A stretch of 64,000 bases of DNA, from contig NC_015510.1 of NCBI RefSeq assembly GCF_000212735.1, forward strand, positions 3,622,315 through 3,686,314, written 5' to 3'. The stretch comes from Haliscomenobacter hydrossis DSM 1100. GTDB taxonomy: Bacteria; Bacteroidota; Bacteroidia; Chitinophagales; Saprospiraceae. The translations under genes and the position numbers were made by a program. This document shows, piece after piece, positions 13,900-30,675 of the stretch (the stretch's first letter is position 1; each line of letters opens with the position of its first letter). A model generated the notes under the pieces. The model was not told where the DNA came from and made no database searches. It saw nothing but the letters and a program-made list of their open reading frames with translations.

Positions 13900-14742
13900 A
13901 TGCAAGAACACTGGGACATCGTCATCACCCCCCGCAAATCCCTCTTTGCGCTCAACCTGCGTGAAGTCTGGAACTATCGCGATTTACTCAGTCTGTTTGT
14001 ACGGCGCGACATCGTAGCCCAGTACAAACAAACCATCCTGGGGCCGCTGTGGTATTTCATCCAGCCCATGCTGACCACCATCATGTTCACCATCGTGTTT
14101 GGCAACCTGGCGGGTATCTCCACGGATGGCATCCCACCCATGTTGTTTTACCTGGCGGGCATCACCAACTGGAACTATTTTGCCGAATGCCTCAACAAAA
14201 CGAGTACTACCTTTCGCGACAACCAAAACCTTTTTGGCAAGGTGTATTTCCCGCGCCTGGTGGTGCCCCTGAGCATTGTAGCCTCCAATCTGGTGCGCTA
14301 CGGCATTCAGATGTTGTTGTTTGTGGCGTTTTATATCTACTTTTTGAGTAGCGGCACGGCCATCGCGCCCAATGCCGCCGCCCTGCTTTTCCCACTGCTG
14401 GTGGTTTTGCTGGCTGGATTGGGACTGGGTTTTGGCCTGATCATCACGGCCCTGACCACCAAGTACCGCGATCTGGTGTTCCTGGTGCAGTTTGGCGTAC
14501 AACTGGCCATGTATGCCACACCGGTGATTTACCCGCTGAGCAAAATCCCCGCCGAATACCAGTGGATTGCCCTGGCCAACCCCATGACCGCCTTGATCGA
14601 AACCTTCAAATACGGCCTGCTCGGGCAGGGGACGTTTTCCTGGTGGGGACTGGGGTATAGTGCCGCGTTTACGCTGGTGGCAGTGCTGCTGGGTACGGCG
14701 ATATTTAACCGGACGGAGCGGACGTTCATGGATACGGTGTAG
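13900..14742 (+). CDS. wzm: ABC-2 type polysaccharide export permease
   Basis: The 280-residue membrane protein shows the ABC-2 permease layout: a cytosolic N-terminus with the conserved RRDIVAQYKQTILGPLWYFIQP-like region (residues about 34-55), then about six hydrophobic helices, a TTKYRDL loop (186-192) and a C-terminal SSWWGLGY-like re-entrant segment. Proteins of this type (Wzm, KpsM, TagG) pair with a Wzt-type ATPase to export undecaprenyl-linked glycans. The natural partner, wzt, is found only at 29386, about 14.6 kb away, with accessory DNA between. Length is typical. Upstream is a repeat array and no clear promoter box. Confidence 0.88.
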   Translation: MQEHWDIVITPRKSLFALNLREVWNYRDLLSLFVRRDIVAQYKQTILGPLWYFIQPMLTTIMFTIVFGNLAGISTDGIPPMLFYLAGITNWNYFAECLNKTSTTFRDNQNLFGKVYFPRLVVPLSIVASNLVRYGIQMLLFVAFYIYFLSSGTAIAPNAAALLFPLLVVLLAGLGLGFGLIITALTTKYRDLVFLVQFGVQLAMYATPVIYPLSKIPAEYQWIALANPMTALIETFKYGLLGQGTFSWWGLGYSAAFTLVAVLLGTAIFNRTERTFMDTV

Positions 14743-15088: not shown

Positions 15089-15089
15089 A

Positions 15090-16216: not shown

Positions 16217-16232
16217 ACAAATTGCCAATAGT

Positions 16233-16611: not shown

Positions 16612-16656
16612 GCTTCCCTGTTCACAAAAGCTTAATAAAGTAGCCAAATTCAAGCC
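16612..16656 (+). promoter_or_regulatory. Recurrent cassette leader, copy B
   Basis: CTTCCCTGTTCACAAAAGCT then TAATAAAGTAGCCAAATTC leads straight into the DUF4240 start at 16657. The same word group precedes 19362, 20484 and 26311. It may be a promoter or ribosome-binding leader; I see no standard TAnnTTTG box. Confidence 0.5.
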
Positions 16657-17223: not shown

Positions 17224-17391
17224 GCGGATCAACGCGGATTTTTATCCCGCCTTCGGCGTTGATGGATCAAAATAGCCAGAAAGGCAAAATGAAGTGAGGC
17301 AATCAAAAATAAACTATTTTTAGTTTATTTTTTCTACAAACCACAAAAAATAACTAAATTCGACCATCACGAACCTTAAACCCTCGTTCGT
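17224..17391. other. Spacer with start of the second Rpn repeat unit
   Basis: The first part carries a small imperfect hairpin (GATCAACGC ... GCGTTGAT, 17228-17264). From about 17309 the DNA matches the region before copy 1 (AAATTCGACCATCACGAACC and following), so the direct repeat begins here. Confidence 0.6.
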
Positions 17392-18369: not shown

Positions 18370-18389
18370 TTAAACAAATTGCCAATAGT

Positions 18390-18680
18390 ATGCCCATTAC
18401 GATAGACCTGCGAGAAAATGCCCTAGTCAAAGACCTGATCGCCGAAGTGCAAGCCGAAACGGAAGTATATCGCCAACTAGCAAAAGAACAGCGTCGGCAG
18501 ATCGAAGAGCAACGCCAACAAGCAGAAGAGCAGCGCCAACAAGCGGAAGAACAACGCCAGCACACTCGCGCTGCCATCCTCAATCTCTACCAAACTCTGC
18601 ACCTGGAACCCACCCTGATCGCAACTATTTTTGAGATCAGCGAACAAGAGGTTTTGGGTATTTTGGAGGCTGCTGAATAG
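18390..18680 (+). CDS. Orphan alternative C-terminal tail, copy 2
   Basis: The 96 residues are identical to the tail at 16233, and the DNA upstream repeats the same 78-bp block of the nuclease gene (18378-18455). Its conservation between two repeat units may reflect only the recent duplication. The remarks on the first tail apply. Confidence 0.6.
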   Translation: MPITIDLRENALVKDLIAEVQAETEVYRQLAKEQRRQIEEQRQQAEEQRQQAEEQRQHTRAAILNLYQTLHLEPTLIATIFEISEQEVLGILEAAE

Positions 18681-18731
18681 ACTTATTGCGACGAGAGCGA
18701 TCTCGTGCAAGGTATAAATAGAGAAGTGGCG

Positions 18732-19007
18732 CGAAAAATTCGTCATTCCAAAACACGAATTAAACCTTGCTTTTGAGGCTTCGCCTCCCTTTACCAAAAG
18801 CGGCAGGATGGTAAAACGGATGAAACGGACCAAACGGATTGGAACGGACTTTGGCTCGCCTTCGGCTCATCCATATCCGCCGCAGGCGGAAAAAAATCCG
18901 TTCCCATCCGTTTCATCCGTTTCATCCGTTTTTCCATCCTGTCGCTTTGGTGGCTTATAATCCGCTAAAACCCCAAACCCAACGCACCCCATTCGTCATT
19001 CGTCATT
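18732..19007. repeat. ~275-bp foldback repeat, copy 1
   Basis: It begins CGAAAAATTCGTCATT and carries TGAGGCTTCGCCTCC, then GCGGCAGGATGG paired with CCATCCTGTCGC about 140 bases later. Many AAACGGA / TCCGTTT words pair between the arms, and a central CCGCCGCAGGCGG hairpin sits between them. Six copies lie between 18.7 and 22.2 kb, all in the same orientation. No protein is expected; the ORFs in it read HPFHPFHPF-type repeats. Confidence 0.88.
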
Positions 19008-19283
19008 CGAAAAATTCGTCATTTCAAAACACGAATCAGACCTTGCTTTTGAGGCTTCGCCTCCCTTTACCAAAAGCGACAGGAACGTAAAACGGATAAA
19101 ACGGACTAAACGGATTGGAACGGACTTTGGCTCGCCTTCGGCTCAGCCTTATCCGCCGCAGGCGGAAAAAAATCCGTTCTCATCCGTTCCATCCGTTCCA
19201 TCCGTTTTTCCATCCTGTCGCTTTGGTGGCTTATAATCCGCTAAAATCCCAAACCCAAGGCACCCCATTCGTCATTCGTCACT
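19008..19283. repeat. ~275-bp foldback repeat, copy 2
   Basis: Directly adjoins copy 1 head to tail and ends where CGAAAAATTCGTCATTCC starts again, followed by the leader of the xisH gene at 19362. Confidence 0.88.
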
Positions 19284-19310
19284 CGAAAAATTCGTCATTC
19301 CCAAACCATT

Positions 19311-19361
19311 CCTCTTTCCATTCTGCCAAAAAAAGCTTAATATAGTAGCGAAATTTAAACG
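19311..19361 (+). promoter_or_regulatory. Recurrent cassette leader, copy C
   Basis: TTCTGCCAAAAAAAGC then TTAATATAGTAGCGAAATTT ends at the xisH start. It matches copies at 16612, 20436 and 26239, which precede unrelated genes. Confidence 0.5.
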
Positions 19362-19778
19362 ATGCCAGCAAAAGACCTTGTTCACGATTTAGTAAGAACC
19401 GCACTCGAAAAGGATGGTTGGCTAATTACGCATGACCCCTATTTCATGCCTGTGGGTAAGGAACGTAGTTTCATCGATTTAGGTGCAGAGAAAATTCTTG
19501 CGGCAACCAAAGAAAATCAGAAAATTGCGGTTGAAATAAAATCCTTCGCAGGAGAGTCTGACTTGGTCGCTTTTAGAGATGCGCTCGGACAATACCTATT
19601 TTACCGGGCAATCCTCAAAGATTTTGAGCAAGATCGAATACTATACCTGGCAGTTGGCAATGCTATTTTTTCTGATTTTTTTCTAGAAGTCCCCATCAAA
19701 AAAGTATGGGAACTTTATCAAGTGAATGTGCTGGTATTTGATGAAACCAAACAAACAATCATCAAATGGATACAATAA
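19362..19778 (+). CDS. xisH: XisH family protein, copy 1
   Basis: The 138-residue protein matches XisH, first described as a factor needed for excision of the fdxN element in Anabaena. It has a PD-(D/E)XK-like core: D39 in FIDLGAEK and E58-x-K60 in KIAVEIKSF, then FRDALGQYLFYRAIL and a C-terminal YQVNVLVFDETKQTIIKWI. This suggests a nuclease-like fold; activity is not shown by the sequence. Its stop overlaps the start of xisI by 13 bases. No phage integrase or excision element is visible nearby, so an excision role here is doubtful. Confidence 0.88.
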   Translation: MPAKDLVHDLVRTALEKDGWLITHDPYFMPVGKERSFIDLGAEKILAATKENQKIAVEIKSFAGESDLVAFRDALGQYLFYRAILKDFEQDRILYLAVGNAIFSDFFLEVPIKKVWELYQVNVLVFDETKQTIIKWIQ

Positions 19779-20095
19779 ATCAACATAAAACCATCGTACT
19801 GGACTATCTAGAGGAAGTAGCTAACCTAACCCCGTCTGGACTGACTGAGACAATCGTCGATGAGCAACACAACCAATACTTGCTGTACAGCAACTATTGG
19901 GAAGAAAATCAACGGCGCTACGGTTGCTTTCTGCACATTCAGATCAAGCCCGACGGTAAGGTATGGATTCAACACGATGGCACTGATCTTTCAGTAGCCC
20001 AGCAACTGGTAGAGCGGGGTATTCCCAAAAACCAAATTGTCCTGGGCTTCCGCGCTCCTTTTTATCGGCAGATGAGTGATTTTGCAGTGGCGTGA
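19766..20095 (+). CDS. xisI: XisI family protein, copy 1
   Basis: The 109-residue partner of XisH has the usual family text: HNQYLLYSNYWEENQRRYG, HIQIKPDGKVWIQHDGTD and VAQQLVERGIPKNQIVLGF. It lies 13 bases into the xisH gene, so the two are co-translated. XisI has no known catalytic motif and may control XisH. The C-terminus ends DFAVA instead of the GYAAA of the other copies. Confidence 0.88.
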   Translation: MDTINQHKTIVLDYLEEVANLTPSGLTETIVDEQHNQYLLYSNYWEENQRRYGCFLHIQIKPDGKVWIQHDGTDLSVAQQLVERGIPKNQIVLGFRAPFYRQMSDFAVA

Positions 20096-20140
20096 TGAAT
20101 AAACCCCAGACCCAGCGAACCCCATTCGTCATTCGTCACT

Positions 20141-20416
20141 CGAAAAATTCGTCATTCCAAAACACGAATTAAACCTTGCTTTTGAGGCTTCGCCTCCTTT
20201 TGTTAAAAGCGACAGGATGGAAAAACGGATAAAACGGACTAAACGGATTGGAACGGACTTTGGCTCGCCTTGGGCTCATCCATATCCGCCGCAGGCGGAA
20301 AAAAATCCGTTCTCATCCGTTCCATCCGTTCCATCCGTTTTTCCATCCTGTCGCTTTGGTGGCTTATAATCCGCTAAAATCCCAAACCCAAGGCACCCCA
20401 TTCGTCATTCGTCACT
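20141..20416. repeat. ~275-bp foldback repeat, copy 3
   Basis: Same element as at 18732. The 45 bases before it (20096-20140) are a truncated 3' end of another copy, placed directly after the xisI stop. After it follows leader copy D. Confidence 0.88.
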
Positions 20417-20435
20417 CGAAAAATTCGTCATTCCC

Positions 20436-20483
20436 CTTGCCTCACTGCTCACAAAAGCTTAATATAGTAGCCAAATCCAAGTC
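20436..20483 (+). promoter_or_regulatory. Recurrent cassette leader, copy D
   Basis: TGCCTCACTGCTCACAAAAG then CTTAATATAGTAGCCAAATC leads into the second DUF4240 gene. Confidence 0.5.
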
Positions 20484-21038
20484 ATGACCACCAAAATCAG
20501 TGTCTCTTTATCCGCTATCGACGATGACTTTCTGCGCCAGCTGAAAGACAAATACAGCGGCCATACCCGCTTGGACATTCAGGTAGTAGAACTGGACGAA
20601 GAGCCCACCTTGACTGAGACCGATTTTTGGAACATTATCGATGCCCTGGATTGGGACGCCCCCAACACTGATGCAATACTAGAGCCTGCTATCCAGGCAT
20701 TGAGCCAACAGCCACTCAGCCACATTTACCAGTTTGAGGACATGTTGGCCGAAAAACTGTTTCAACTCGATACTGCAGCACACGCCAATGTGGCTTATCC
20801 AGAACCCCAACGCATATCCGAAGATGGCTTCCTGTATGTACGCGCAGCTGTACTCGCCTCTGGACAGGAATACTATACAGAGGTTTTGAACAATCCAGCC
20901 CTTCTTGACGCTGACGACGATTTCGAACCCATCCTCTCTCTGGCCGCTTTAGCCTACGAACGCAAAACCGGAAAGGATTTCGATTACATCGCCCCCGTCG
21001 ATTATGAGACGTATGCAAATGAGGCGGGCTGGGAATGA
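20484..21038 (+). CDS. DUF4240 family protein, copy 2
   Basis: The 184-residue paralogue of the protein at 16657 shares the layout: N-terminal module KISVSLSAIDDDFLRQLKDKY, LTETDFWNIIDALDWD (46-61), HIYQFEDMLAEKLFQLD and EDGFLYVRAAVLASGQEYY. The two are clearly diverged, unlike the Rpn copies, so this is not a fresh duplication. Its TGA overlaps the ATG of the next gene by four bases, which ties it to a GIY-YIG-like protein. An immunity or antitoxin role is a possible inference from that coupling and its acidity. Confidence 0.8.
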   Translation: MTTKISVSLSAIDDDFLRQLKDKYSGHTRLDIQVVELDEEPTLTETDFWNIIDALDWDAPNTDAILEPAIQALSQQPLSHIYQFEDMLAEKLFQLDTAAHANVAYPEPQRISEDGFLYVRAAVLASGQEYYTEVLNNPALLDADDDFEPILSLAALAYERKTGKDFDYIAPVDYETYANEAGWE

Positions 21039-21370
21039 AAAAACGGGGCGCAAATCACAACAACTCGCATAAAAATGATGCAGATCATCACCTTTACGAG
21101 TTTTATGACCAGCAAGAGAAAGAGACGTTTAAATACGGCATCAGTTGTGAACCTATTGGAGAAGATGGTTTGAGCAAACGGATGCGTCGTCAGTTGGATA
21201 TTTTTAACCTCGCCGCTGGATGGGTGCGCTACATTGTTCACATTTTATTGACTGGAATTCCTGGCCGTAAAACTGCTGAGGAAATTGAAGATGAACACAT
21301 GGCCGCTTTTGAAGAAAAATACGGCAGATTGCCCCGAGGCAACAAAAGCAAGAACCGCAAAAGCCGCTAA
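21035..21370 (+). CDS. Small basic GIY-YIG-like protein (putative)
   Basis: The 111-residue protein follows DUF4240 with an ATGA overlap. Residues about 19-40 read HLYEFYDQQEKETFKYGIS, which fits the two strands of a GIY-YIG nuclease (Y...KYGIS), followed by LSKRMRRQL, a hydrophobic helix (WVRYIVHILLTGI) and GRKTAEEIEDEH where the family has its Arg and Glu. The C-terminus is strongly basic (NKSKNRKSR). The GIY-YIG call rests on pattern only. A toxin-like nuclease paired with DUF4240 is inference. Confidence 0.6.
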   Translation: MKKRGANHNNSHKNDADHHLYEFYDQQEKETFKYGISCEPIGEDGLSKRMRRQLDIFNLAAGWVRYIVHILLTGIPGRKTAEEIEDEHMAAFEEKYGRLPRGNKSKNRKSR

Positions 21371-21409
21371 AACCCCAAACCCAACGCACCCCATTCGTCA
21401 TTCATCACT

Positions 21410-21682
21410 TGAAAAATTCGTCATTCCCAACACGAATCAGACCTTGCTTTTGAGGCTTCGCCTCCCTTTACCAAAAGCGGCAGGATGGTAAAACGGATGA
21501 AACGGACCAAACGGATGAGAACGGACTTTGGCTCGCCTTCGGCTCAGCCTTATCCGCCGCAGGCGGCAAAAATCCGTTCCATCCGTTCCATCCGTTCCAT
21601 CCGTTTTTCCATCCTGTCGCTTTGGTGGCTTATAATCCGCTAAAATCCCAAACCCAACGCACCCCATTCGTCATTCGTCACT
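21410..21682. repeat. ~275-bp foldback repeat, copy 4
   Basis: Same element; preceded at 21371-21409 by another truncated 3' end (CCCCAAACCCAACGCACCCC). Copies 4, 5 and 6 follow one another without spacer. Confidence 0.88.
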
Positions 21683-21956
21683 CGAAAAATTCGTCATTTC
21701 AAAACACGAATCAGACCTTGCTTTTGAGGCTTCGCCTCCTTTTGTTAAAAGCGACAGGATTGAAAAACGGATAAAACGGACTAAACGGATTGGAACGGAC
21801 TTTGGCTCGCCTTGGGCTCAGCCTTATCCGCCGCAGGCGGCAAAAATCCGTTCCATCCGTTCCATCCGTTCCATCCGTTTTTCCATCCTGTCGCTTTGGT
21901 GGCTTATAATCCGCTAAAACCCCAAACCCAAGGCACCCCATTCGTCATTCGTCACT
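21683..21956. repeat. ~275-bp foldback repeat, copy 5
   Basis: Tandem copy with the CCATCCTGTCGC arm intact and the partner arm slightly changed (GACAGGATTG). Confidence 0.88.
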
Positions 21957-22231
21957 CGAAAAATTCGTCATTTCAAAACACGAATCAGACCTTGCTTTTG
22001 AGGCTTCGCCTCCTTTTGTTAAAAGCGACAGGAATGTAAAACGGATAAAACGGACTAAACGGATTGGAACGGACTTTGGCTCGCCTTCGGCTCAGCCTTA
22101 TCCGCCGCAGGCGGCAAAAATCCGTTCTCATCCGTTCCATCCGTTCCATCCGTTTTTCCATCCTGTCGCTTTGGTGGCTTATAATCCGCTAAAACCCCAA
22201 ACCCAAGGCACCCCATTCGTCACTCATCACT
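21957..22231. repeat. ~275-bp foldback repeat, copy 6
   Basis: Last copy; the partner arm reads GACAGGAATG. Its right end meets the 3' end of the minus-strand gene at 22227, whose last codons lie in the CGAAAAATTCGTCA word of the next unit. Confidence 0.88.
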
Positions 22232-22664
22232 CGAAAAATTCGTCATCCACCAACCCCTCGGCCACAAACAAACCCTGTACATCCTGCACCAGCCGCGCCC
22301 AATCAAAATCCGCTGCTTGTGCTACCCGCGCCAAATCCCGCAAACCCTGCAGATACCTCCGCGCCATCAGCCCCAAAACCTCCTGCTCGGTAGCCGGTTC
22401 CAGGGCGGCATAGGGCAACCGGAGTTGCAGGTAGGCCTCCCTGGTGCTGGGTTCAAAACTGATTTCCTCCTCGTGAATGACATCCTCGGGGGCCGTACCC
22501 AAAAACACCCCGGCAATGCCGGCTACCCCCGTACCATACGCGGCCAACTGCACAGTTGCATTCAGCAATTGCTCCAGCAACTGCACATTGTGGGTGTCAA
22601 TTTTGTCACCAATGGGGTTGTCTTCCACAATACTGGAAACGACGAAAGCTGTGTACATGATCAT
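22227..22664 (-). CDS. Hypothetical acidic protein, possible immunity partner
   Basis: The 145-residue acidic, helical protein starts six bases after the stop of the upstream GIY-YIG-like gene, so the two form one transcript. Features seen are a hydrophobic middle (QLAAYGTGVAGIAGVFLG, about 40-57) and a C-terminal helix (FDWARLVQDVQGLFVAEGL). The last residues DEFFE and the stop are read from the repeat word CGAAAAATTCGTCA, so the natural end may have been replaced. I do not recognise the family; immunity function is inferred from position only. Confidence 0.6.
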   Translation of the reverse strand: MIMYTAFVVSSIVEDNPIGDKIDTHNVQLLEQLLNATVQLAAYGTGVAGIAGVFLGTAPEDVIHEEEISFEPSTREAYLQLRLPYAALEPATEQEVLGLMARRYLQGLRDLARVAQAADFDWARLVQDVQGLFVAEGLVDDEFFE

Positions 22665-22670
22665 CCAGGT

Positions 22671-23210
22671 TTATAAGTCCACTTTGTTGCCAGGAGGCCG
22701 GATCAGCGGCAGCTTGCGCCGGGTGTTTTCTGGCAATAAAGCATATTGATAAATTTTCAAGGTTTCCTGGCGCAAACAGTCCTGAATGGTGCCCCGGAAT
22801 TGCACCCGATAACGCAAACCCAGCGTCGTCACCCAATTGCGGTAACGCCCTTTTTCGCCCTGGATGGTGATGCCGTATTTCCAGACTTCACCCGCCCGCA
22901 AAAAAATCAGCGTATCCGCCGCGCAATGGTAACAAGGGTAAAACCCACTGAATTTGGCCCGGAGCACATACTGCTCACAGCGCTCCAAACGTTGCAGACG
23001 TTGCTGCAGCTGTGCTTCACGCGAGGAGGACAATTTCAAACCCCCTCCGGCGTCCTGCTCCAGAAAATTGGTGTCCTTCCAGGTAGCCAGTATCGCCAAG
23101 ATACAACTACACACCATGAAAAACAACAGCACCACGCGCGGGTTTTTTGGCTGTTGGGGAGCAGGGGCGCGCATAGGCCCGGTCTGGTACTTTTTGGCTA
23201 CCTTATTCAT
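22671..23210 (-). CDS. Membrane-anchored GIY-YIG-like toxin domain protein (putative)
   Basis: The 179-residue protein has a basic N-terminus, one transmembrane helix (about 25-43) and a coiled linker (62-80). Its C-terminal domain contains GFYPCYHC (89-96), EVWKYGIT (108-115), GRY (121-123), a Glu at 149 and PLIRPPGNKVD at the end. The YP-C-x2-C plus KYGIT...GRY...PPGNK pattern matches C-terminal GIY-YIG-type nuclease domains of Bacteroidota polymorphic toxins as I recall them. Here the domain is on a short anchor instead of a long secreted protein. The downstream acidic gene would be the immunity partner. Toxin activity is inference. Confidence 0.62.
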   Translation of the reverse strand: MNKVAKKYQTGPMRAPAPQQPKNPRVVLLFFMVCSCILAILATWKDTNFLEQDAGGGLKLSSSREAQLQQRLQRLERCEQYVLRAKFSGFYPCYHCAADTLIFLRAGEVWKYGITIQGEKGRYRNWVTTLGLRYRVQFRGTIQDCLRQETLKIYQYALLPENTRRKLPLIRPPGNKVDL

Positions 23211-23339
23211 AACGAAATTTTGACCACCTGAGGTGGAATCAGTGAATAACTCACCCTACGCAGACCTGTTCTTGGTCTTTATCCGGCGCAGGTAAAAGTG
23301 AGTATGACTACAGTACACTGCGATTTCAATTTAGCCGTA

Positions 23340-23600
23340 GTTTTTTCACCGCAGCGTAAAGGAGTACACGCGGAGTTCCGCGGAGTTTTTTAAGGGCACC
23401 TGCGGTGCACCGAGGCCACGGAGGTCGCTATTGCTGAAAGTTGGTCCCTTACCCTCAAGTCCCATTATTCTTGACTTGATCTTCAGCAAAATCTTCCTGG
23501 AGCCCGAACTCCTGCCACCGTAGGTGGCAAACTCCTTAAAACTAAAACTCCGCGGAACTCCGCGTGTACTCCTTTACGCTGCGGTGAAAAATGCGTAATG
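23340..23600. repeat. ~275-bp foldback element, copy B
   Basis: Terminal inverted blocks (CACCGCAGCGTAAAGGAGTA at 23347 and the complement near 23563-23587) and the inner CACCTGCGGTGCACCGAGGC block match copy A at 9597-9873 in reverse orientation. The rest of the 23211-23698 spacer has no ORF. Confidence 0.8.
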
Positions 23601-23698
23601 TGAGTGAATAAATGCTATTTTTCGGATCAGTTCCTATGCTGGGAACAAAGGTAAATAATTGGAATTAAATTCCAAAATTTTAGGACAAAATTATAATT

Positions 23699-24028
23699 AT
23701 GCCGCTACCCACTGACCCAGACCCCCAGGTTTTCCTACGTGTAAAAGGTGCCCTCAAAACCATCGGCATGAGCCAAAGAGACCTGGCCAAACACCTCGGA
23801 CTGGCCCCTGGCGTAGTGAGCCTGGCACTCAGCGGCGGCAATGAAAAAACCTTCCGCCGCATCATCGACATGCTGGAACAGGAACACCAGATCGATCCCC
23901 TCCAACTGTTTGGGGAAGGCGAACGGGGCGATCGGATTTTGGGGGAACTGCAGGAGATCAAAGCAGAACTGCATGCCCTGCGGGCAGAAATTAAAGCACT
24001 GGGACGGCGGTTCGAGGAGAAAAAGTAA
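23699..24028 (+). CDS. Helix-turn-helix (XRE-like) DNA-binding protein
   Basis: The 109-residue protein has an HTH at about 12-55 (RVKGALKTIGMSQRDLAKHL, then GLAPGVVSLALSGG) typical of Cro/C1 repressors, and a C-terminal coiled coil (EIKAELHALRAEIKALGRRF) likely for dimerisation. It could regulate genes of the island, perhaps itself, but no operator is obvious. The start may be the ATG at 23699, just after an AT-rich stretch. Confidence 0.75.
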   Translation: MPLPTDPDPQVFLRVKGALKTIGMSQRDLAKHLGLAPGVVSLALSGGNEKTFRRIIDMLEQEHQIDPLQLFGEGERGDRILGELQEIKAELHALRAEIKALGRRFEEKK

Positions 24029-24110
24029 AACCCTGGAACTGAACAGCAATACGAAGCGGATTGTGATTGGCGTTTATACAAAAAAATGCAATCGTTAGGG
24101 AATAATGTGG

Positions 24111-24118
24111 TATATTTG
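24111..24118 (+). promoter_or_regulatory. Candidate -7 box
   Basis: TATATTTG fits TAnnTTTG. It lies about 190 bases before the truncated wzt head and acyltransferase gene. No good -33 partner is seen. Confidence 0.3.
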
Positions 24119-24177
24119 TAACTTATTTTATTGTATGCTTCCTAGCCGCCCGCGCGGTACAAATCCTGAAAAAACTT

Positions 24178-24200
24178 TGCGACCTTTCAGCGGCGAAGCC
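24178..24200. repeat. Dispersed repeat word, copy 2
   Basis: The 23 bases are identical to 13736-13758. The surrounding 24029-24307 spacer has no other ORF and ends in CATTCCCCTTG, a word also seen at cassette borders. Confidence 0.6.
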
Positions 24201-24307
24201 TTGTTTAATACCTTTAAATTTATGCTTTTGAATTCCTGGAGGTAGCGCAAATAGTCGTTCTGTTCGGGGCAAAATGCCAGATGCAACGCGATAATTCGTC
24301 ATTCCCC

Positions 24308-24400
24308 TTGTCTGACGTAATCAAAGTAAAAAACCTTTCGAAACAGTATCGCCTGGGAGAGGTGGGTACGAGAACTCAAAAGCTGAAGCACCAACCTTGA
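24308..24400 (+). pseudogene. wzt 5' fragment 1
   Basis: From a TTG at 24308 the frame reads SDVIKVKNLSKQYRLGEVGT, the first 20-odd residues of the Wzt-type ATPase, then 10 unrelated codons to a TGA. The TGA overlaps the TTG start of the acyltransferase (TTGA), so this fragment may act as a translated leader for that gene. Confidence 0.8.
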
Positions 24401-25476
24401 ACATCCCTACAACTGTACACCCCAACACCCGCAACGCCACCATTGATGGTTGGCGTGGACTCTCCATCATTCTGGTTCTGTTGGGACACACGGGTAGAGC
24501 GATTTCTCAAAACAATATCCTGGCCAGGTTTTCACTTGCCGACGAAGGGGTACACATCTTTTTCATCATCTCGGGCTACTTGATCACCCATTTGTTGCTT
24601 ACGCGGATACATTCAGCGGCAAAAGAAGCGCAACCGATCAAAAAATTCTACCTCCGCAGGTTTTTAAGAATATTGCCCGCCTTTTATGCCTTTCATCTGA
24701 TCTTGCTGCTGCTGCGCAAGGTAGAATTGCTGGATTTCAGCAACGAGTTGTTTCTAAAAAACATCCTTTTTTTGGCCAATTTCAATTTCTTAGGAGGTAC
24801 ATGGATACTGGGCCACATCTGGTCTTTGTCGGTCGAAGAACAGTTTTACCTCGTGTGGCCTTGGGCAGTGTATTATCTACCTATAGCGCGGATCAAATGG
24901 CTTTGTTTAGTAGTCATCGGCTTGAGTCCCCTGATTCGAGCACTCAATTACCTGTATCCAACTTATTCCGATTTTTGGGCGGGTGGCTTTTTTCAACACG
25001 CCGATAGCATTGCTTTTGGGGCCATGCTGAGTTTGTTGATCTACACCAAACAAGAAAGAATCCTGAACAGGTTGCGCAACCCCATGTTGCTGCTTGGCCT
25101 CGCAGGGCTATCTGCAGTCATTTGGGCCCTAAAATACATCCCCCACACGAGCATCATTACCATACCACTATACTATACCGTTTTTAGTCTTTTTTTCAGC
25201 GTGCTCATTTGGGTGAGTATGGCTGAAAAAACTACCGCAGTATTTATTTTTCAGGCTTTGAAAAATCCGGTGTTGGGGTTTATCGGAAAAATCTCTTTTT
25301 CGCTTTACCTCTGGCAGCAGCTTTTTCTATGGCCCATGGAATACCAAAGTGCAAGTTCGGGCTTACTGTTTCAACAGATTCCGTACAATATTGCCTTTGT
25401 GGGTTTAGCCGGGGTACTTTCTTATTTTTTGATTGAAAAAACTTTTTTGCGGTTGAAGGGGAGCTGGCAATTGTAA
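24397..25476 (+). CDS. Acyltransferase 3 family membrane protein
   Basis: The 359-residue protein starts at TTG 24397 and is a membrane-embedded O-acyltransferase of the OafA type. It shows DGWRGLSIILVLLGHTGRA (residues 17-35) with the catalytic-type His of the family, FFIISGYLITHLLL, FYLRRFLRILPAFYAF and WSLSVEEQFYLVWP, with about ten hydrophobic helices in all. Such proteins add acetyl or other acyl groups to sugars of surface glycans. No SGNH domain is fused. It sits in the island between wzm and wzt behind a wzt fragment, which suggests it arrived as cargo. Confidence 0.88.
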   Translation: MNIPTTVHPNTRNATIDGWRGLSIILVLLGHTGRAISQNNILARFSLADEGVHIFFIISGYLITHLLLTRIHSAAKEAQPIKKFYLRRFLRILPAFYAFHLILLLLRKVELLDFSNELFLKNILFLANFNFLGGTWILGHIWSLSVEEQFYLVWPWAVYYLPIARIKWLCLVVIGLSPLIRALNYLYPTYSDFWAGGFFQHADSIAFGAMLSLLIYTKQERILNRLRNPMLLLGLAGLSAVIWALKYIPHTSIITIPLYYTVFSLFFSVLIWVSMAEKTTAVFIFQALKNPVLGFIGKISFSLYLWQQLFLWPMEYQSASSGLLFQQIPYNIAFVGLAGVLSYFLIEKTFLRLKGSWQL

Positions 25477-25521
25477 GCCTCTACTCTTTTGTTGTTTGAG
25501 CTGATTTTACGCAGAATTTTC

Positions 25522-25659
25522 ATGAGCAATACTATAATCAAAGTTAATAACCTCTCCAAACAGTATCAACTGGGTGAGGTAGACCTGAATCACTCCCAGC
25601 AGGATTGCGATTTAATTGAAAAAGTCCTAATTTGTATGCTCGAAAACATTCACCAATGA
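25522..25659 (+). pseudogene. wzt 5' fragment 2
   Basis: ATG at 25522 gives SNTIIKVNNLSKQYQLGEV, the Wzt start, followed by about 25 unrelated codons and a TGA. The TGA overlaps the ATG of the next remnant (ATGA). The fragment is cut at the same place (after LGEV) as fragment 1. Confidence 0.8.
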
Positions 25660-25750
25660 GCAGCTTGTACAAACTTAAACTTTCTGACCTCAACGCCAAT
25701 CTGCTAAAGGAACTGCAAGCGCAGTAAGCCATGCCGAAGTAGAATTACTT
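25656..25750 (+). pseudogene. Frameshifted fragment like the DUF4240 N-terminal module
   Basis: The frame SSLYKLKLSDLNANLLKELQ resembles the start of the DUF4240 proteins (HINLNALDESFIEELRQRYG). It stops at 25725; in another frame the text continues SHAEVELL, as AAEVEIL does in the intact protein at 16657. It is a decayed start without the DUF4240 domain, or a relic of a short antitoxin-like gene. Confidence 0.55.
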
Positions 25751-25757
25751 TGAAAGT

Positions 25758-25850
25758 ATGCGCCTCATTCAGCTGGGCATCGAAAAATACCAAGTGAAAT
25801 TGATTATCTTTGATCACGACAACGAAACCATCGAGTCATGGATAAATTAA
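25758..25850 (+). pseudogene. 3' remnant of an xisH gene
   Basis: The last 30 codons read LGIEKYQVKLIIFDHDNE and end SWIN, matching the XisH end at 26311 (IEDYQVQIIIFDPLTKE). Its stop overlaps the intact xisI at 25838, as in the other pairs. The rest of this xisH has been lost. Confidence 0.78.
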
Positions 25851-26176
25851 GCACTTACAGCAATTACGTAGTCGAGTTATTGGAAACCTACCTCCACCCT
25901 GGTTTGGAATCCCCCATCCACGAACACCTGGTGATCGATAGAGAACACCACCATTACCAGTTTTTGCGTGAGGGTTGGGTAGATAAAAATACCTTCCAAA
26001 TGGGGATAGTACTCCATTTTCAGATCAAAGCCGATGGTAAAATCTGGATTTTGGCCAACTGGACCGAAGATGATGTGGCTCGTGAACTTGTAGAACGTGG
26101 GGTACTGAAACAAGATATCGTACTGGCCTTCCAACCGGAGTCGGTACGGAAGTTGAGTGGGTATGCAGCAGCGTGA
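25838..26176 (+). CDS. xisI: XisI family protein, copy 2 (partner xisH truncated)
   Basis: The 112-residue protein has all XisI text: HHHYQFLREGWVDKNTFQMG, HFQIKADGKIWILANWTEDD, LVERGVLKQDIVLAFQPESV and RKLSGYAAA. Only 30 codons of the matching xisH remain upstream, so this XisI is orphaned unless it works with another XisH. It looks intact. Downstream, 26177-26240 has a short end of the ~275-bp repeat (GAAAAATTCGTCATTCCCC). Confidence 0.85.
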   Translation: MDKLSTYSNYVVELLETYLHPGLESPIHEHLVIDREHHHYQFLREGWVDKNTFQMGIVLHFQIKADGKIWILANWTEDDVARELVERGVLKQDIVLAFQPESVRKLSGYAAA

Positions 26177-26238
26177 GGATAAATGCCAGACCGAATGCTC
26201 CCATTCGTCACTCGTCACTTGAAAAATTCGTCATTCCC

Positions 26239-26310
26239 CTTGCTTCCCTGCCCACAAATGCTTAATATAGCAACAAAGTTAGTATAGCAAAGCCAAACCT
26301 CTTCGAACCT
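26239..26310 (+). promoter_or_regulatory. Recurrent cassette leader, copy E
   Basis: TGCTTCCCTGCCCACAAATG then CTTAATATAGCAACAAAGTT matches leaders B-D, with about 30 extra bases before the xisH start at 26311. Confidence 0.45.
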
Positions 26311-26727
26311 ATGGCAAGAGATGCCTTACACAACGATGTAAAATTAGCCCTCATCAAAGAAGGATGGACGATAACCAACGACCCGCTTTCTTTGGAAGGT
26401 TGGCGACCAGGCTGGGAGGTAGACTTGGGAGCAGAAAGAGTGATCGCAGCTGAACGAGGAATCGAAAAAATTGCAGTGGAAGTCAAAGGGTTTTCAGAAC
26501 AATCTTTTGCCTATGAATTCCATCGAGCCTTAGGGCAATATTTGAATTATAAATCTGGCTTAAAACGTTTGGAGCCTGATCGAAAAGTTTACATTGCAGT
26601 ACCTATTGATGTCTACAACCGTGAATTCAGTCAAATTGGCGTACTTGCCTCTATTGAAGACTATCAAGTACAAATCATTATCTTTGATCCATTGACTAAA
26701 GAAATTTCATCATGGAAGAAGCAGTAA
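26311..26727 (+). CDS. xisH: XisH family protein, copy 2
   Basis: The 138-residue protein has the nuclease-like core D38 (WEVDLGAER) and E57-x-K59 (KIAVEVKGF), then FHRALGQYLNYKSGL and YQVQIIIFDPLTKEISSW. It is clearly diverged from the copy at 19362. The stop overlaps xisI by 16 bases. Leader copy E is upstream. Confidence 0.88.
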   Translation: MARDALHNDVKLALIKEGWTITNDPLSLEGWRPGWEVDLGAERVIAAERGIEKIAVEVKGFSEQSFAYEFHRALGQYLNYKSGLKRLEPDRKVYIAVPIDVYNREFSQIGVLASIEDYQVQIIIFDPLTKEISSWKKQ

Positions 26728-27065
26728 ATAAAACCCACTACAAAGCTATCCTCTCTTCTTACCTGGAAGAACTGGCAGTGCAATACAATTCCCAACCTAA
26801 CCACCACCTGGAATATCAGGCATTGATTGATACCGAACGTGGCCACTTCCAATTACTGAAACTGGGTTGGTACAATCGCCAATACATCTACACCGTGCTT
26901 GTCCACTTTGATGTCAAAGTAGATGGAAAAGTTTGGATCCAACTCAATGATACCGAAATGCTCGTTGCCGACGAGATCGTTGAGCGTGGTATTGCAAGAG
27001 AAGATGTGGTGTTAGGCTACAAACCTGATTATATGCGCCCATATACGGGGTTTGCAGCAGCGTGA
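26712..27065 (+). CDS. xisI: XisI family protein, copy 3
   Basis: The 117-residue partner of the XisH just upstream has ERGHFQLLKLGWYNRQYIY, HFDVKVDGKVWIQLNDTEM, VERGIAREDVVLGYKPDYM and the family end TGFAAA. The spacer after it (27066-27187) carries a partial repeat end (CTTGAAAAATTCGTCATTCC) and no gene. Confidence 0.88.
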   Translation: MEEAVNKTHYKAILSSYLEELAVQYNSQPNHHLEYQALIDTERGHFQLLKLGWYNRQYIYTVLVHFDVKVDGKVWIQLNDTEMLVADEIVERGIAREDVVLGYKPDYMRPYTGFAAA

Positions 27066-27187
27066 GGATAAATGCCAGACTCAAGGCCCCATTCGTCACT
27101 CGTCACTTGAAAAATTCGTCATTCCCTTCTGGGAAAACTCCAAGAGCTTACAAACCTTAACCTCTTATAACTCATAACTCCTCACGC

Positions 27188-27517
27188 TTGTCTACCGTAA
27201 TCAAAGTTGAAAACCTCTCCAAACAGTATCGCCTGGGTGAGGTGAGTACAGGTACCATCTCGCACGACCTAAACCGTTGGTGGCACCGCATCCGCGGCAA
27301 AGAAGATCCTTACTTGCGCATCGGTGAAAGCAACGACCGCACGAGCAAAGGCAACTCCGAATACGTTTGGGCACTCCAAGACATCAATTTTGAGGTGCAA
27401 CAAGGTGAAGTGCTGGGTATCATTGGCAAAAATGGGGCAGGGAAAAGTATATTGCTTAAAATTATCTCTGCTAAACCTCGTGCTACTATAGTATTGAACA
27501 AAGTGAGAACAAATTGA
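27188..27517 (+). pseudogene. wzt 5' fragment 3 (longest)
   Basis: A TTG at 27188 starts a 109-residue frame that is almost identical to the first 93 residues of the Wzt-type ATPase at 29386, including the Walker A motif GKNGAGKS, then breaks off into SAKPRATIVLNKVRTN and a stop. The signature motif, Walker B and glycan-binding domain are all missing, so it cannot work as an ATPase. Confidence 0.85.
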
Positions 27518-27583
27518 AAGACTAAGGAGCATGAACTTAATGCTTATGAACGTCAACAAGTCAGATTTGTACAATTATATAAG

Positions 27584-28459
27584 ATGTCATTAAAATCAAC
27601 TTTAAAGTTTCTCTACGAACATCCATTAACCAAAACTAGACCATTGGCAGCCATTTGGCGCTTTGCTACTTGGCAAATATCCTCTCGTCTATTCCCTAAA
27701 CCTAGAGTAATGTCTTGGATAGGTGGCACCAAACTTTGGATCAAACGAGGCTGGACAGGGATAACGGGTAATTATTACGCGGGCTTACATGAAGTCAATG
27801 ACATGGCTTTTTTGTTGCATTTGCTACGCCCTGGAGATGTATTTGTAGATGTGGGAGCAAATATGGGAACATACACCGTCCTTGCTTCTGGGGTTTGTGG
27901 AGCGTATTCTTATAGTTTCGAGCCTATACCCAGTACGTTTGAACGCCTACAAGCTAATGTACAGTTGAACCAGTTGGAAAAACTGACTATGGTAACGAAA
28001 TGTGCCATAGGGGGGCAAACCGGCGAACTACGTTTTACTTACAGAGAAGACACAACTAACCACGTTGCCACCGAAACGGAACAGGATGTTGTGATTGTGC
28101 CCGTAAAAACGCTGGACGATTGTGTGCCTCAAACACCCAATTTGATCAAAATTGATGTAGAAGGATTTGAAACAGAAGTATTGCAAGGAGCACAGCACTA
28201 TTTAGCGCATCCTGCTTTAAAAGCAATCATCATTGAGCTTAATGGTTCGGGCGCACGCTATGGGTATGATGAAGAAGTGATCCATCAAAAGTTGCTCGAT
28301 TTACAATTCCAGGCTTGTACTTATGATCCTTTTCATCGAAAACTGCAGGCTCTATCGCATTTTGGGAACCACAATACTATTTATTGTCGAGACTTGGAAT
28401 GGATCAACGCTCGTTTGAAAGAGGCAGATCAGATTCAGGTGCTTCATCATCATTTTTAG
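27584..28459 (+). CDS. FkbM family methyltransferase, copy 1
   Basis: The 291-residue protein has the FkbM layout: SAM-binding motif VFVDVGANMGTYTVLAS (86-102), SFEPIPSTFERLQANVQLN and NLIKIDVEGFETEVLQGA (about 186-203). FkbM enzymes methylate hydroxyl groups of sugars or polyketides; beside export genes a sugar O-methylation is likely. It has low GC and lies between two wzt fragments, as imported cargo would. Confidence 0.88.
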   Translation: MSLKSTLKFLYEHPLTKTRPLAAIWRFATWQISSRLFPKPRVMSWIGGTKLWIKRGWTGITGNYYAGLHEVNDMAFLLHLLRPGDVFVDVGANMGTYTVLASGVCGAYSYSFEPIPSTFERLQANVQLNQLEKLTMVTKCAIGGQTGELRFTYREDTTNHVATETEQDVVIVPVKTLDDCVPQTPNLIKIDVEGFETEVLQGAQHYLAHPALKAIIIELNGSGARYGYDEEVIHQKLLDLQFQACTYDPFHRKLQALSHFGNHNTIYCRDLEWINARLKEADQIQVLHHHF

Positions 28460-28478
28460 ACCATAGCTATGAGAATAA

Positions 28479-28575
28479 TACCGTTATCAAAGTCGAAAAC
28501 CTTTCCAAACAGCATCGACTGAGTAAGGTAAGTACGAGGACGAGAAGGAAGTTTTTATCATTCCTGGTTTTGTGA
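28479..28575 (+). pseudogene. wzt 5' fragment 4
   Basis: The frame reads NNTVIKVENLSKQHRLSKV and then unrelated residues to a stop at 28575. The original ATG now lies out of frame (28469), suggesting a small indel. It directly follows the FkbM stop. Confidence 0.75.
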
Positions 28576-28633
28576 TTCCCTATTGAAAGTGTAAAAACCC
28601 TTTGACTACTTTGTCATTTTAACACCAGCCAAT

Positions 28634-29359
28634 ATGAGTATACTCAATAAAATTATACCAGCATCACTTAAACTCAAACTCAAACGAAAACTAGGGGTAC
28701 CCAACATGTTTTGGAGCTTGCAAAACATGCAGCAAAATGGGTTTCGACCAAATAAAATAATTGACATCGGTGCTTACGAAGGCAAATGGACTTTGGAAAT
28801 GCTTTCTATTTTTCCTAATGCCAAATATCTAATGATTGAACCCCTGGAAAGTAAAAAAGGCCTACTGACAACTTTACAGAAGTCCAGACCAGATCAAATT
28901 ACTTTTGTAAATGCACTTTTGGGAGCTACTGATGGCCAGCCGGTTACCTTTAACGAAATGGAAACAGCGAGCTCCGTATTAAAGGAGCACCATAGCACTT
29001 CTGCCCAGCTCGTAAGTAAAACATTGAGCAGTTTATCCGCTATTGCTCAACAAAAAGGGTTTGAAAAACCTGATTTCATCAAACTGGATACGCAAGGCTA
29101 CGAACTGGAAATCCTGAAAGGAGGTAGCGATGTTTTAAGTACAACTCAAGCAGTTTTGATGGAAGTTTCATTGCTGGACATTCACAGGCAAGTGCCGTTG
29201 ATCAACGAAGTATTTGATTTTATGGCAAAATATGGTTTTGTAGCTTATGATATTTGCAGTTTGGTTCGTAGACCTTTGGATAAAGCACTTTGGCAGGTTG
29301 ATGTGATATTTGTAAAATTGGATCACTCTATTCGCAATGATAAAAGATGGGGTGCTTGA
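28634..29359 (+). CDS. FkbM family methyltransferase, copy 2
   Basis: The 241-residue protein has the SAM motif IIDIGAYEGKWTLEM (42-56), MIEPLESKKGLL and FIKLDTQGYELEILKGG (about 152-168), followed by a conserved MEVSLLDIH. It is a different FkbM subgroup from the copy at 27584, so not a recent duplicate. It ends 26 bases before the wzt start. Expected role is O-methylation of the glycan, perhaps the terminal cap that the Wzt C-terminal domain recognises. Confidence 0.88.
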   Translation: MSILNKIIPASLKLKLKRKLGVPNMFWSLQNMQQNGFRPNKIIDIGAYEGKWTLEMLSIFPNAKYLMIEPLESKKGLLTTLQKSRPDQITFVNALLGATDGQPVTFNEMETASSVLKEHHSTSAQLVSKTLSSLSAIAQQKGFEKPDFIKLDTQGYELEILKGGSDVLSTTQAVLMEVSLLDIHRQVPLINEVFDFMAKYGFVAYDICSLVRRPLDKALWQVDVIFVKLDHSIRNDKRWGA

Positions 29360-29385
29360 GGATTTTTAACAAAAAGTTATAGAAA

Positions 29386-30675
29386 TTGAATAAACCTGTA
29401 ATCAAAGTCGAAAATCTCTCCAAACAATACCGCCTGGGCGAGGTGGGTACAGGTACGATTTCGCATGACCTGAACCGCTGGTGGCACCGCATCCGGGGCA
29501 AAGAAGACCCCTACCTGCGCATCGGCGAAAGCAACGACCGTACTAGTAAAGGCAACTCCGAATACGTATGGGCACTCCAGGACATCAACTTTGAAGTGCA
29601 ACAGGGCGAGGTGCTGGGTATCATTGGCAAAAATGGGGCAGGGAAAAGTACTTTGCTCAAAATCCTTTCCAAAGTAACGGCTCCTACTACTGGATCAATT
29701 AAAGCCAAAGGGCGTATTGCCGCTTTATTAGAAGTAGGCACAGGTTTTCACCCCGAACTAACCGGACGCGAAAACATCTACCTGAACGGCACCATCCTGG
29801 GCATGACCAAACGGGAAGTAACGGCCAAACTGGATGAAATTGTGGATTTTTCCGGGGTAGAACGTTATTTGGATACGCCCGTGAAACGGTATTCTTCGGG
29901 GATGATGGTGCGCCTAGGTTTTGCTGTGGCTGCGCATTTGGAGCCGGAGATTTTGATTGTGGATGAAGTGCTGGCGGTGGGGGATGCGGAGTTTCAGAAG
30001 AAGGCGGTGGGGAAAATGGAAAGCGTGGCAAAAACTTCCAATCGTACTGTTCTATTTGTAAGCCACAACATGGCTGCAGTAAGGAGTTTGTGCTCTCGGA
30101 GTGTAGTCATGAATCAAGGTAAGGTTGAGTTTATTGGTGAAACACCTGAAGCCGTAGAGCACTATCTTGAGATCACGAGAGTTGGAACAACCGCTGCCGA
30201 ACTGATTTTAGAAAATAACCCTGCTCAAACTTTTTCTTTTTCACGAATCTCGTTAAAAGATGCTGAAGGTCATGTCAAGAACACTTTTGAAAGCAATGAA
30301 GAAATTTTTCTTGACATAAAACTACGAACTCAAGAAAGTATTCGAGGTTCCAGAATCGTCTTTCAATTAATCGGACAGGATGAAATTGTAGTTTTTGCAT
30401 CTACCAATCACAACCTGACCAGTGGGCTAAGCTTGCATGGTACATATCAAGTTCAGTGCAAAATACCTGGAAATTTACTCAATACAGGGGCTTATCAAGT
30501 CCGATTGCATGCTGGTATCCCTAATCAACAAGTATTGGTCCAACCTCAAGACTACCTAAGTTTACAAATTCTGAATAGTGGAGTGCACGGCTCTATTTTT
30601 CAAGAAAAATGGCCTGGAATAATCGCACCAGCATTGGAGTGGAAGATACAGGCCGAAACACAATACCATGATTGA
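29386..30675 (+). CDS. wzt: ABC transporter ATPase with Wzt-type C-terminal domain
   Basis: The 429-residue protein starts at TTG 29386. It has Walker A GKNGAGKST (81-89), the signature YSSGM (169-173), Walker B ILIVDE (189-194) and H227 in FVSHN, then a Wzt C-terminal beta-sandwich (about 270-425) that binds the finished glycan end. It should pair with the permease at 13900. By hand count GC is about 54% at 29881-30000 and 37% at 30181-30300, so the gene is a mosaic: native ATPase head and foreign glycan-binding tail. Its start is repeated four times upstream as fragments. The next gene overlaps by eight bases. Confidence 0.93.
   Translation: MNKPVIKVENLSKQYRLGEVGTGTISHDLNRWWHRIRGKEDPYLRIGESNDRTSKGNSEYVWALQDINFEVQQGEVLGIIGKNGAGKSTLLKILSKVTAPTTGSIKAKGRIAALLEVGTGFHPELTGRENIYLNGTILGMTKREVTAKLDEIVDFSGVERYLDTPVKRYSSGMMVRLGFAVAAHLEPEILIVDEVLAVGDAEFQKKAVGKMESVAKTSNRTVLFVSHNMAAVRSLCSRSVVMNQGKVEFIGETPEAVEHYLEITRVGTTAAELILENNPAQTFSFSRISLKDAEGHVKNTFESNEEIFLDIKLRTQESIRGSRIVFQLIGQDEIVVFASTNHNLTSGLSLHGTYQVQCKIPGNLLNTGAYQVRLHAGIPNQQVLVQPQDYLSLQILNSGVHGSIFQEKWPGIIAPALEWKIQAETQYHD

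What the first reader, a model, noticed from the sequence alone, without database searches (positions are those of the whole stretch)
24308..29480. Four truncated heads of wzt, one in front of each cargo gene
Fragments at 24308, 25522, 27188 and 28479 all restart the Wzt N-terminus (IKVxNLSKQ) and break off after 20-93 residues; the full gene is at 29386. Each lies just before (or, at 28479, just between) cargo: acyltransferase, xis remnants, FkbM 1, FkbM 2. The simplest reading is repeated insertion of glycan-modifying genes at the wzt start, each event leaving a duplicated head. This would be a serial capture mechanism with wzt as the anchor. Some heads overlap the next start codon (TTGA, ATGA) and may now serve as translated leaders.
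Basis: partly seen in the sequence, partly recalled or inferred. Interest (0 to 1): 0.75.

Follow-up and report, generated by a model that had tools for sequence, protein, structure and literature searches.

The report
Serial gene-capture scars at wzt start
In a sludge bacterium, the gene cluster that exports surface sugar chains carries four broken-off beginnings of one transporter gene, which look like scars left by successive acquisitions of foreign genes just in front of that gene.

Summary
Five copies of the wzt 5' end (four truncated, one complete) lie at 24308-29386 and, at E below 0.01, nowhere else in the 8.77 Mb genome, whose size matches published Haliscomenobacter hydrossis. No wzt body or tail remnant was detected between wzm and wzt. 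The longest head differs from wzt at 26 silent but 2 replacement codons of 88 (P = 6e-8 against neutral change on its own branch), so it came from a functional, diverged wzt, not from a recent copy. In congener G100 the same flanks enclose two unrelated glycosyltransferases and no head. Of 84 other loci with wzm found upstream, 79 have wzm within 700 nt of wzt; of the five others, one Bacteroidales contig has a truncated head, two have complete tandem wzt, two have no head. Best reading: repeated one-sided capture, a homologous crossover in wzt on the right and an illegitimate junction inside the old wzt on the left. It mirrors the published serial-displacement model for Vibrio type VI effectors. 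Decay of complete tandem wzt genes is the main rival.

The parts
13900..14742 (+). wzm, membrane subunit of the O-antigen type ABC exporter; left end of the interrupted wzm-wzt pair
   Evidence: ABC2_membrane PF01061, E 6.5e-21; wzm and wzt lie within 700 nt of each other in 79 of the 84 other loci where wzm was found upstream, 103 examined
20375..21426 (+). DUF4240 gene and following repeat; left flank shared with the congener G100 (which lacks 21072-21231)
   Evidence: 93% nt identity to L070 over 697 nt and 93% over 195 nt; DUF4240 PF14024
24308..24400 (+). head 1: truncated wzt 5' end, homology 24317 to about 24376, TTG start, stop TGA overlaps the next start (TTGA)
24397..25476 (+). cargo 1: acyltransferase family 3, 359 aa, apparently intact
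   Evidence: PF01757 E 1.1e-30, residues 14-345; no match at E <= 1e-25 other than itself in 199 family genomes, own included
25522..25659 (+). head 2: truncated wzt 5' end, homology about 20 codons, ATG start
25838..27065 (+). XisI-like ORF, then an XisH-XisI pair, each followed by a repeat; probably an independently inserted unit, not glycan cargo
   Evidence: PF08814 and PF08869 for 26311-26727 and 26712-27065; the first ORF (25838-26176) was named by its likeness, not scanned; repeats D3 and D5
27188..27517 (+). head 3: longest truncated wzt 5' end, about 95 codons into Walker A, TTG start
   Evidence: 89% nt identity over 266 nt to wzt; 26 S / 2 N of 88 codons; branch test
27584..28459 (+). 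cargo 2: FkbM-family methyltransferase 1, 291 aa, full length against relatives
   Evidence: PF05050 E 1.9e-16; relatives at 36-48% in 5 of 150 family genomes besides own (E <= 1e-20) and at 47-51% in 4 of 395 phylum genomes besides own (E <= 1e-50); N-termini compared
28469..28575 (+). head 4: truncated wzt 5' end, homology about 28474-28542; the ATG at 28469 is out of frame, no in-frame start of its own
28634..29359 (+). cargo 3: FkbM-family methyltransferase 2, 241 aa
   Evidence: PF05050 E 5.4e-15; one relative (32%) besides own in 199 family genomes (E <= 1e-25)
29386..30675 (+). complete wzt: ATPase domain plus C-terminal Wzt_C-like region, TTG start
   Evidence: PF00005 E 6.8e-23; Wzt_C PF14524 E 5.4e-7, 30.1 bits, just under its 30.4 cut-off; only complete copy of this type in the genome

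Best explanation
The heads are scars of serial, one-sided DNA capture. Incoming DNA carried a gene (here mostly glycan-modifying) lying directly upstream of a wzt gene from a related bacterium. Its right end recombined homologously with the resident wzt (conserved ATPase half), which kept a complete wzt. Its left end was joined without homology inside the 5' part of the old resident wzt. The old 5' end was thus cut off and left upstream of the new gene, while the resident wzt body was taken over by the new 5' end. Repetition gives head-cargo-head-cargo-wzt, with no tails and always one working wzt at the right. Shown: the heads, their order, the lack of detected body remnants, the protein-level constraint on head 3, the shared flanks in a congener, and a single-head case elsewhere. 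Inferred: the one-sided (homology-facilitated illegitimate) mechanism, the order of events, the foreign source, and that the cargo changes the exported glycan.
For: Four heads, and no piece of wzt beyond about codon 95 found in 14743-29385 with 34 Wzt queries. Head 3 versus wzt: 26 S / 2 N of 88 codons; on the head 3 branch 15 S / 2 N nucleotide changes against a neutral N fraction of 0.75, P = 6e-8. In congener G100, DUF4240 on the left (93% nt) and wzt on the right (84% nt) are shared, while the interval holds a family-11 and a family-25 glycosyltransferase gene and no head. G100 wzt is mosaic against the window's: codons 0-23 are more diverged than the rest (permutation P 0.0025 over 88 codons, 0.026 over 200); of five other pairs h3/G100 gave 0.07, the rest 0.4-0.7. 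G147 has wzm-wzt-three genes-wzt in which the two wzt copies are 100% identical at codons 9-63 and 80-209 and diverged between and around these, so wzt does recombine with wzt across intervening genes. L127 (Bacteroidales MAG) has wzm, a 44-aa truncated wzt-type head starting 4 nt after the wzm stop, about 4 kb with two radical-SAM genes and one gene without a Pfam hit, then a 239-aa ABC ATPase gene with its own head. Cargo has few or no relatives in the family genomes sampled.
Against: No donor locus with a cargo gene directly upstream of wzt was found; FkbM1 relatives in G470, G597 and G758 lie 20-25 kb from a wzt on the same contig (coordinates). Heads 1, 2 and 4 are too short to tell constraint from partial neutral decay (8 S/2 N, 6 S/3 N, 7 S/5 N). 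Tails made only of the variable C-terminal domain would escape the search. The clustering of three breaks at codons 16-20 is not predicted by the model. L127 is an imperfect parallel: its downstream ATPase gene ends before the contig end and has no Wzt_C domain, and its cargo is not clearly glycan-modifying. Flavobacterium yafengii (L097, with two FkbM-family genes) and congener G018 (L063) have cargo between wzm and wzt without any head, so heads are not an obligatory product.
Confidence: 0.53

Rival explanations
1. Decay of complete tandem wzt genes: whole wzt-plus-cargo units were added by homologous recombination, giving several complete wzt genes, and redundant copies later lost their bodies by deletion, leaving heads.
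For: Tandem complete wzt genes exist in G147 (wzm-wzt-three genes-wzt) and G276 (wzm-wzt-wzt-acyltransferase-like gene) of the same order. Head 3 evolved under constraint, as expected of a long-lived full gene.
Against: It needs four independent deletions, each removing all detectable body beyond codon 20-95 and sparing the next gene; no internal or tail piece was found. Three breaks fall within five codons. No intermediate was seen in the genus, but only four other genomes were available there, partly in short contigs.
Confidence: 0.26
2. Heads are kept as translated leaders: a captured wzt translation start drives each cargo gene by stop-start coupling.
For: Head 1 stop overlaps the acyltransferase start (TTGA); heads 1-3 have open frames with starts.
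Against: Head 4 has no start of its own in frame; head 2 leads into a remnant; heads 3 and 4 end 66 and 58 nt before the next gene. Promoter- and terminator-like matches are at shuffle level.
Confidence: 0.07
3. Site-specific cassette array: the 60-nt head is an attachment site used by a recombinase, like an integron.
For: Cargo alternates with a short repeated sequence, and three heads end at nearly the same place.
Against: The other copies differ from head 1 by 13-35%, and mostly at silent codon positions where there are enough sites; head 3 runs on for about 95 codons; no head was found outside this locus at E below 0.01. No search for a recombinase was made.
Confidence: 0.04
4. RecA-mediated shuffling within one genome: heads and wzt recombine to delete or amplify cargo (phase-variation-like), and the array is a product of that rather than of foreign capture.
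For: Head 3 and wzt share 89% over 266 nt, so recombination between them would remove both fkbM genes and leave a whole wzt (inference).
Against: The cargo genes are different from one another (the two FkbM-family proteins included), so amplification does not make them.
Confidence: 0.06

Closest known systems
Serial displacement of type VI effector-immunity modules in Vibrio cholerae (Kirchberger et al. 2017, PMC5361080; passages read)
   Same: Successive insertions at one point next to a conserved homologous anchor; remains of earlier genes pile up; the paper proposes homology-facilitated illegitimate recombination.
   Different: There the anchor is upstream and old immunity genes and 3' ends pile up downstream. 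Here the anchor is downstream, old 5' heads pile up upstream, and the cargo is mostly glycan-modifying.
Homology-facilitated illegitimate recombination (E. coli study PMC3240628, outline and abstract read)
   Different: Shown in laboratory transfer experiments; here inferred from old junctions, with no donor known.
Truncated galE2 beside galE1 in the meningococcal capsule island (PMC5349592, passages read)
   Same: A truncated gene copy is taken as the mark of an island inserted by illegitimate recombination into a resident sugar gene.
   Different: One event and a 3' remnant; here four stacked 5' remnants.
Replacement flexible genomic islands for O-chain genes (PMC4033161, passages read)
   Same: Glycan clusters exchanged by homologous recombination, with peaks of mostly silent changes at the borders.
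   Different: Whole clusters are replaced; here genes appear to be added one after another.
Wzm/Wzt O-antigen ABC exporter with C-terminal cap-binding domain (PMC9445017, passages read)
   Same: wzm, wzt and a Wzt_C-like domain; methyltransferase-type cargo could fit cap chemistry (inference).
   Different: wzm and wzt lie 14.6 kb apart here, with four partial wzt heads between them.

Membership tests
Serial one-sided capture by homology-facilitated illegitimate recombination | Conserved homologous anchor at one end of each added unit | tested here: met
   Each unit ends at a wzt 5' end homologous to the resident wzt
Serial one-sided capture by homology-facilitated illegitimate recombination | Other junction without homology, truncating the resident gene | tested here: inconclusive
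   Similarity to wzt stops abruptly at codons 16-20 or about 95, followed by unrelated DNA; no donor or ancestor locus shows the junction
Serial one-sided capture by homology-facilitated illegitimate recombination | Remnants of one end only, no reciprocal ends | tested here: met
   Four heads, no body or tail found with 34 queries; variable C-terminal tails could be missed
Serial one-sided capture by homology-facilitated illegitimate recombination | Units foreign to the recipient | tested here: inconclusive
   Besides own, relatives of the acyltransferase in 0 and of FkbM2 in 1 of 199 family genomes (E <= 1e-25), of FkbM1 in 5 of 150 (E <= 1e-20); rarity fits foreign origin, no source was found
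Decayed complete tandem wzt duplicates | Complete copies in relatives at the same place | tested here: inconclusive
   Present in G147 and G276 of the order, not seen in the four other genus members searched
Decayed complete tandem wzt duplicates | Body or tail remnants | tested here: not met
Integron-type cassette array | Fixed recombination site of constant ends | tested here: not met
   Heads differ in length (about 20 to 95 codons) and sequence
Integron-type cassette array | Integrase next to the array | not tested
   No integrase-specific search was made
Wzm/Wzt O-antigen exporter | ABC2 membrane subunit, ABC ATPase, C-terminal Wzt_C domain | tested here: inconclusive
   PF01061 E 6.5e-21 (75.3 bits, cut-off 26.9) and PF00005 82.2 bits (cut-off 25) met; Wzt_C 30.1 bits against a cut-off of 30.4

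The most novel reading that the evidence does not exclude
wzt works as a self-renewing landing site: because each capture cuts the old wzt start and supplies a new one, the export gene stays whole while foreign genes stack up in front of it, and each added gene stays removable by recombination between heads. The exporter gene would thus drive a ratchet of cell-surface diversification, recurring in unrelated Bacteroidota.
Probability: 0.27. Interest if true: 0.72.

Novelty: new variant of a known kind. Interest (0 to 1): 0.5.

Why it matters
How O-antigen and other surface-glycan clusters gain single genes without breaking export is, as far as I know, poorly understood; the paper on O-chain islands seen here concerns replacement of whole clusters. 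Here the scars of stacked additions can be read in one genome. They give an ordered, testable history, point to the 5' half of wzt as a recombination anchor, and offer a simple signature (truncated wzt starts in front of other genes between wzm and wzt) to look for elsewhere. The logic of serial displacement of type VI effectors would then extend to glycan export.

Tried and rejected
Simple copy of the resident head at each insertion: rejected for head 3 by the silent/replacement pattern. Heads as a dispersed repeat: no hit outside this locus at E below 0.01. Ordering the heads by age: not possible; 16 codons give too few sites. Truncated heads in G031, G262 and G602: these genes run into contig ends. 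Cargo relatives next to wzt elsewhere: FkbM1 relatives sit among other glycan genes, with no wzt found in the stretches fetched except a weak match in L093; acyltransferase and FkbM2 have almost no relatives in the family sample. Wzt tails in the interval: none found. Extra matches in L048 and L064: low-complexity leaders before other genes, not wzt heads. Promoter and terminator scan: at shuffle level. Literature: the six phrases partial, duplicated, second wzt and wzt pseudogene, remnant, fragment gave no paper; of seven papers listed for wzt/wzm with truncation, recombination or duplication (listing), one holds the words 'truncated wzt', which there means an O8-type gene used for in silico serotyping of E. 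coli (PMC6392093, passages).

Rows set aside and limits: in the adjacency count 19 of 103 loci had no wzm found upstream and were set aside; L112 was left out because it repeats L057 (confirmed; no other overlaps among the 103). The table showed only head matches in frames under 200 aa. The match list was cut at E about 1.7e-4, so weaker truncated heads in those 395 genomes would not show. The 60-aa query is the window's own and would miss diverged short heads elsewhere. Genes cut by contig ends were not all checked.
Full report
WHAT IS THERE. The window lies at C1:3622315-3686314 of a genome of 8,771,651 bases in 4 contigs, with a main contig of 8,371,686 bases. These are the published figures for Haliscomenobacter hydrossis (PMC3156403, passages read). 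wzm is at 13900-14742 and the complete wzt at 29386-30675. Between them lie repeats, Rpn-like genes (name from sequence look; Pfam gave no hit), DUF4240 and XisH/XisI genes, and then the array: head 1, acyltransferase, head 2, Xis genes, head 3, fkbM1, head 4, fkbM2, wzt. The heads are a five-member DNA repeat family. In a search of the whole genome with the wzt start, only these five places score below E 0.01.

WHAT THE HEADS ARE. Head 3 keeps 88 comparable codons. It differs from wzt at 28 codons, 26 of them silent. With G100 and G058 as outside references, 15 silent and 2 replacement nucleotide changes fall on the head 3 branch (7 and 0 on the wzt branch, 4 and 1 unassigned); neutral change would give about 75% replacements, so P = 6e-8. 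The silent distance (26 codons) approaches that between wzt of the window and of congener G100 (32). Head 3 is therefore a recently broken piece of a diverged, functional wzt. Heads 1, 2 and 4 show 8 S/2 N (19 codons), 6 S/3 N (16) and 7 S/5 N (19) against wzt, which fits either constraint or partial decay. At codons 5 and 9 all four heads share a synonym that the complete gene lacks, so none is a fresh copy of the present gene.

NO BODIES, NO TAILS. With 34 Wzt proteins as queries, nothing beyond about codon 95 of wzt was recognised in 14743-29385; the best further matches had E 0.022 or worse. The ATPase half is conserved enough to be seen; a tail made only of the variable C-terminal domain might not be.

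RELATIVES. In congener G100 (L070, a 7.9 kb contig that does not reach wzm) the order is an FAD-type gene, rpn, DUF4240, family-11 and family-25 glycosyltransferase genes, wzt. The left part matches the window at 93% over 697 nt and wzt at 84% over 621 nt; there is no second head. So the same site holds about 8 kb in the window and 1.7 kb of different cargo in G100. Congener G018 (L063) has 6.4 kb between wzm and wzt with other genes and no head. Four other genomes of the genus were available; G102 had no match at E <= 1e-30. Elsewhere the pair is normally close: 103 loci were examined, wzm was found upstream in 84, and it lay within 700 nt in 79 of these. The five others are L063 (no head), L097 (Flavobacterium yafengii: two FkbM-family genes and two glycosyltransferase-like genes, no head), L088 and L089 (complete tandem wzt) and L127. 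L127, a Bacteroidales MAG contig, has wzm, a 44-aa wzt-type head starting 4 nt after the wzm stop, about 4 kb with two radical-SAM genes and one gene without a Pfam hit, and a 239-aa ABC ATPase gene without Wzt_C domain. With a broader head profile on the 134 loci L046-L179 and the window, only the window's four heads and L127 score as truncated heads away from contig or locus ends (E at most 7.4e-5; next best 0.017). In 298 genomes of the order, the 60-aa head query found all five own copies, and otherwise complete genes, genes near contig ends (not all checked) and weak matches.

RECOMBINATION IN wzt. In G147 the two wzt copies flanking three genes are identical at codons 9-63 and 80-209 and differ between, before and after these blocks, apart from a short identical run at 217-230; this is recent recombination or conversion between wzt copies. 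The window and G100 wzt share the ATPase half (79-90% nt from codon 30 to 210), while from codon 210 on they reach only 26-46% nt. A change-point test puts a break near codon 23 for that pair (P 0.0025 over 88 codons, 0.026 over 200). Of five other pairs, h3/G100 gave 0.07 and the rest 0.4-0.7. The test was chosen after seeing the data.

MECHANISM. The simplest history that needs no deletions is one-sided capture: the right end of incoming cargo-plus-wzt-start DNA recombines within wzt, and the left end is joined without homology inside the resident wzt start. Each event leaves the old start as a head and keeps one whole wzt. Complete tandem copies followed by four body deletions is the main rival; it is favoured by L088 and L089, and disfavoured by the lack of any detected body or tail and by the clustering of three breaks at codons 16-20, which the capture model does not predict either. 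The Xis genes behind head 2 are probably a separate insertion: part of the repeat that follows such units is dispersed through the genome (42 matches to an 81-nt query at E <= 1e-6, 12 in the window and 30 of 31-50 nt elsewhere).

COMPARISON WITH WHAT IS KNOWN. Kirchberger et al. (PMC5361080, passages read) proposed something akin to homology-facilitated illegitimate recombination with a conserved upstream anchor to explain arrays of orphan immunity genes and displaced effector 3' ends. The present array is its mirror image in a glycan-export locus. The mechanism was studied in E. coli conjugation (PMC3240628, outline and abstract). Truncated galE2 in meningococcus is a single-event parallel (PMC5349592, passages), and O-chain islands are thought to be exchanged by homologous recombination (PMC4033161, passages). 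Capped O antigens are recognised by the Wzt C-terminal domain (PMC9445017, passages), which makes methyltransferase cargo and C-terminal turnover plausible partners; this link is inference. Phrase searches for partial, duplicated or remnant wzt returned no paper.

VERDICT. Serial capture is the best reading at 0.53, tandem decay 0.26. It is a new variant of a known kind, rare in the sample examined, with one independent but imperfect single-head parallel.

Noticed in passing
window 15156-16530 and 17311-18687: Two direct copies (96% identical over 1380 nt) of an Rpn-like gene block, each followed by a second short coiled-coil-like ORF; both match G100 at about 86%.
   Followed up: partly
window 18970-22250, 26190-26240, 27080-27126: Dispersed repeat (ATTCGTCATTCGTCACTCG...) that follows XisH/XisI, DUF4240 and Rpn-like units; an 81-nt query has 42 matches genome-wide at E <= 1e-6, 12 of them in this window, the other 30 being 31-50 nt long (40 of 71 first-look candidates were scored).
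   Followed up: partly
window 23342-23389 and 23544-23591: Perfect 48-nt inverted repeat 154 nt apart, upstream of the head array.
   Followed up: no
window 11502-12917, - strand: Group II intron type reverse transcriptase/maturase (RVT_1 E 5e-37, GIIM E 2e-8) just upstream of wzm.
   Followed up: partly
L088 4443-10935: Two complete wzt genes in one cluster with sharply bounded blocks of 100% nucleotide identity (codons 9-63 and 80-209) inside otherwise diverged genes: recent wzt-to-wzt recombination.
   Followed up: yes
window 27475-27594: Between head 3 and fkbM1 an overlapping frame ends inside the fkbM1 start, possibly the tail of a gene that preceded fkbM1 in its source (read).
   Followed up: no
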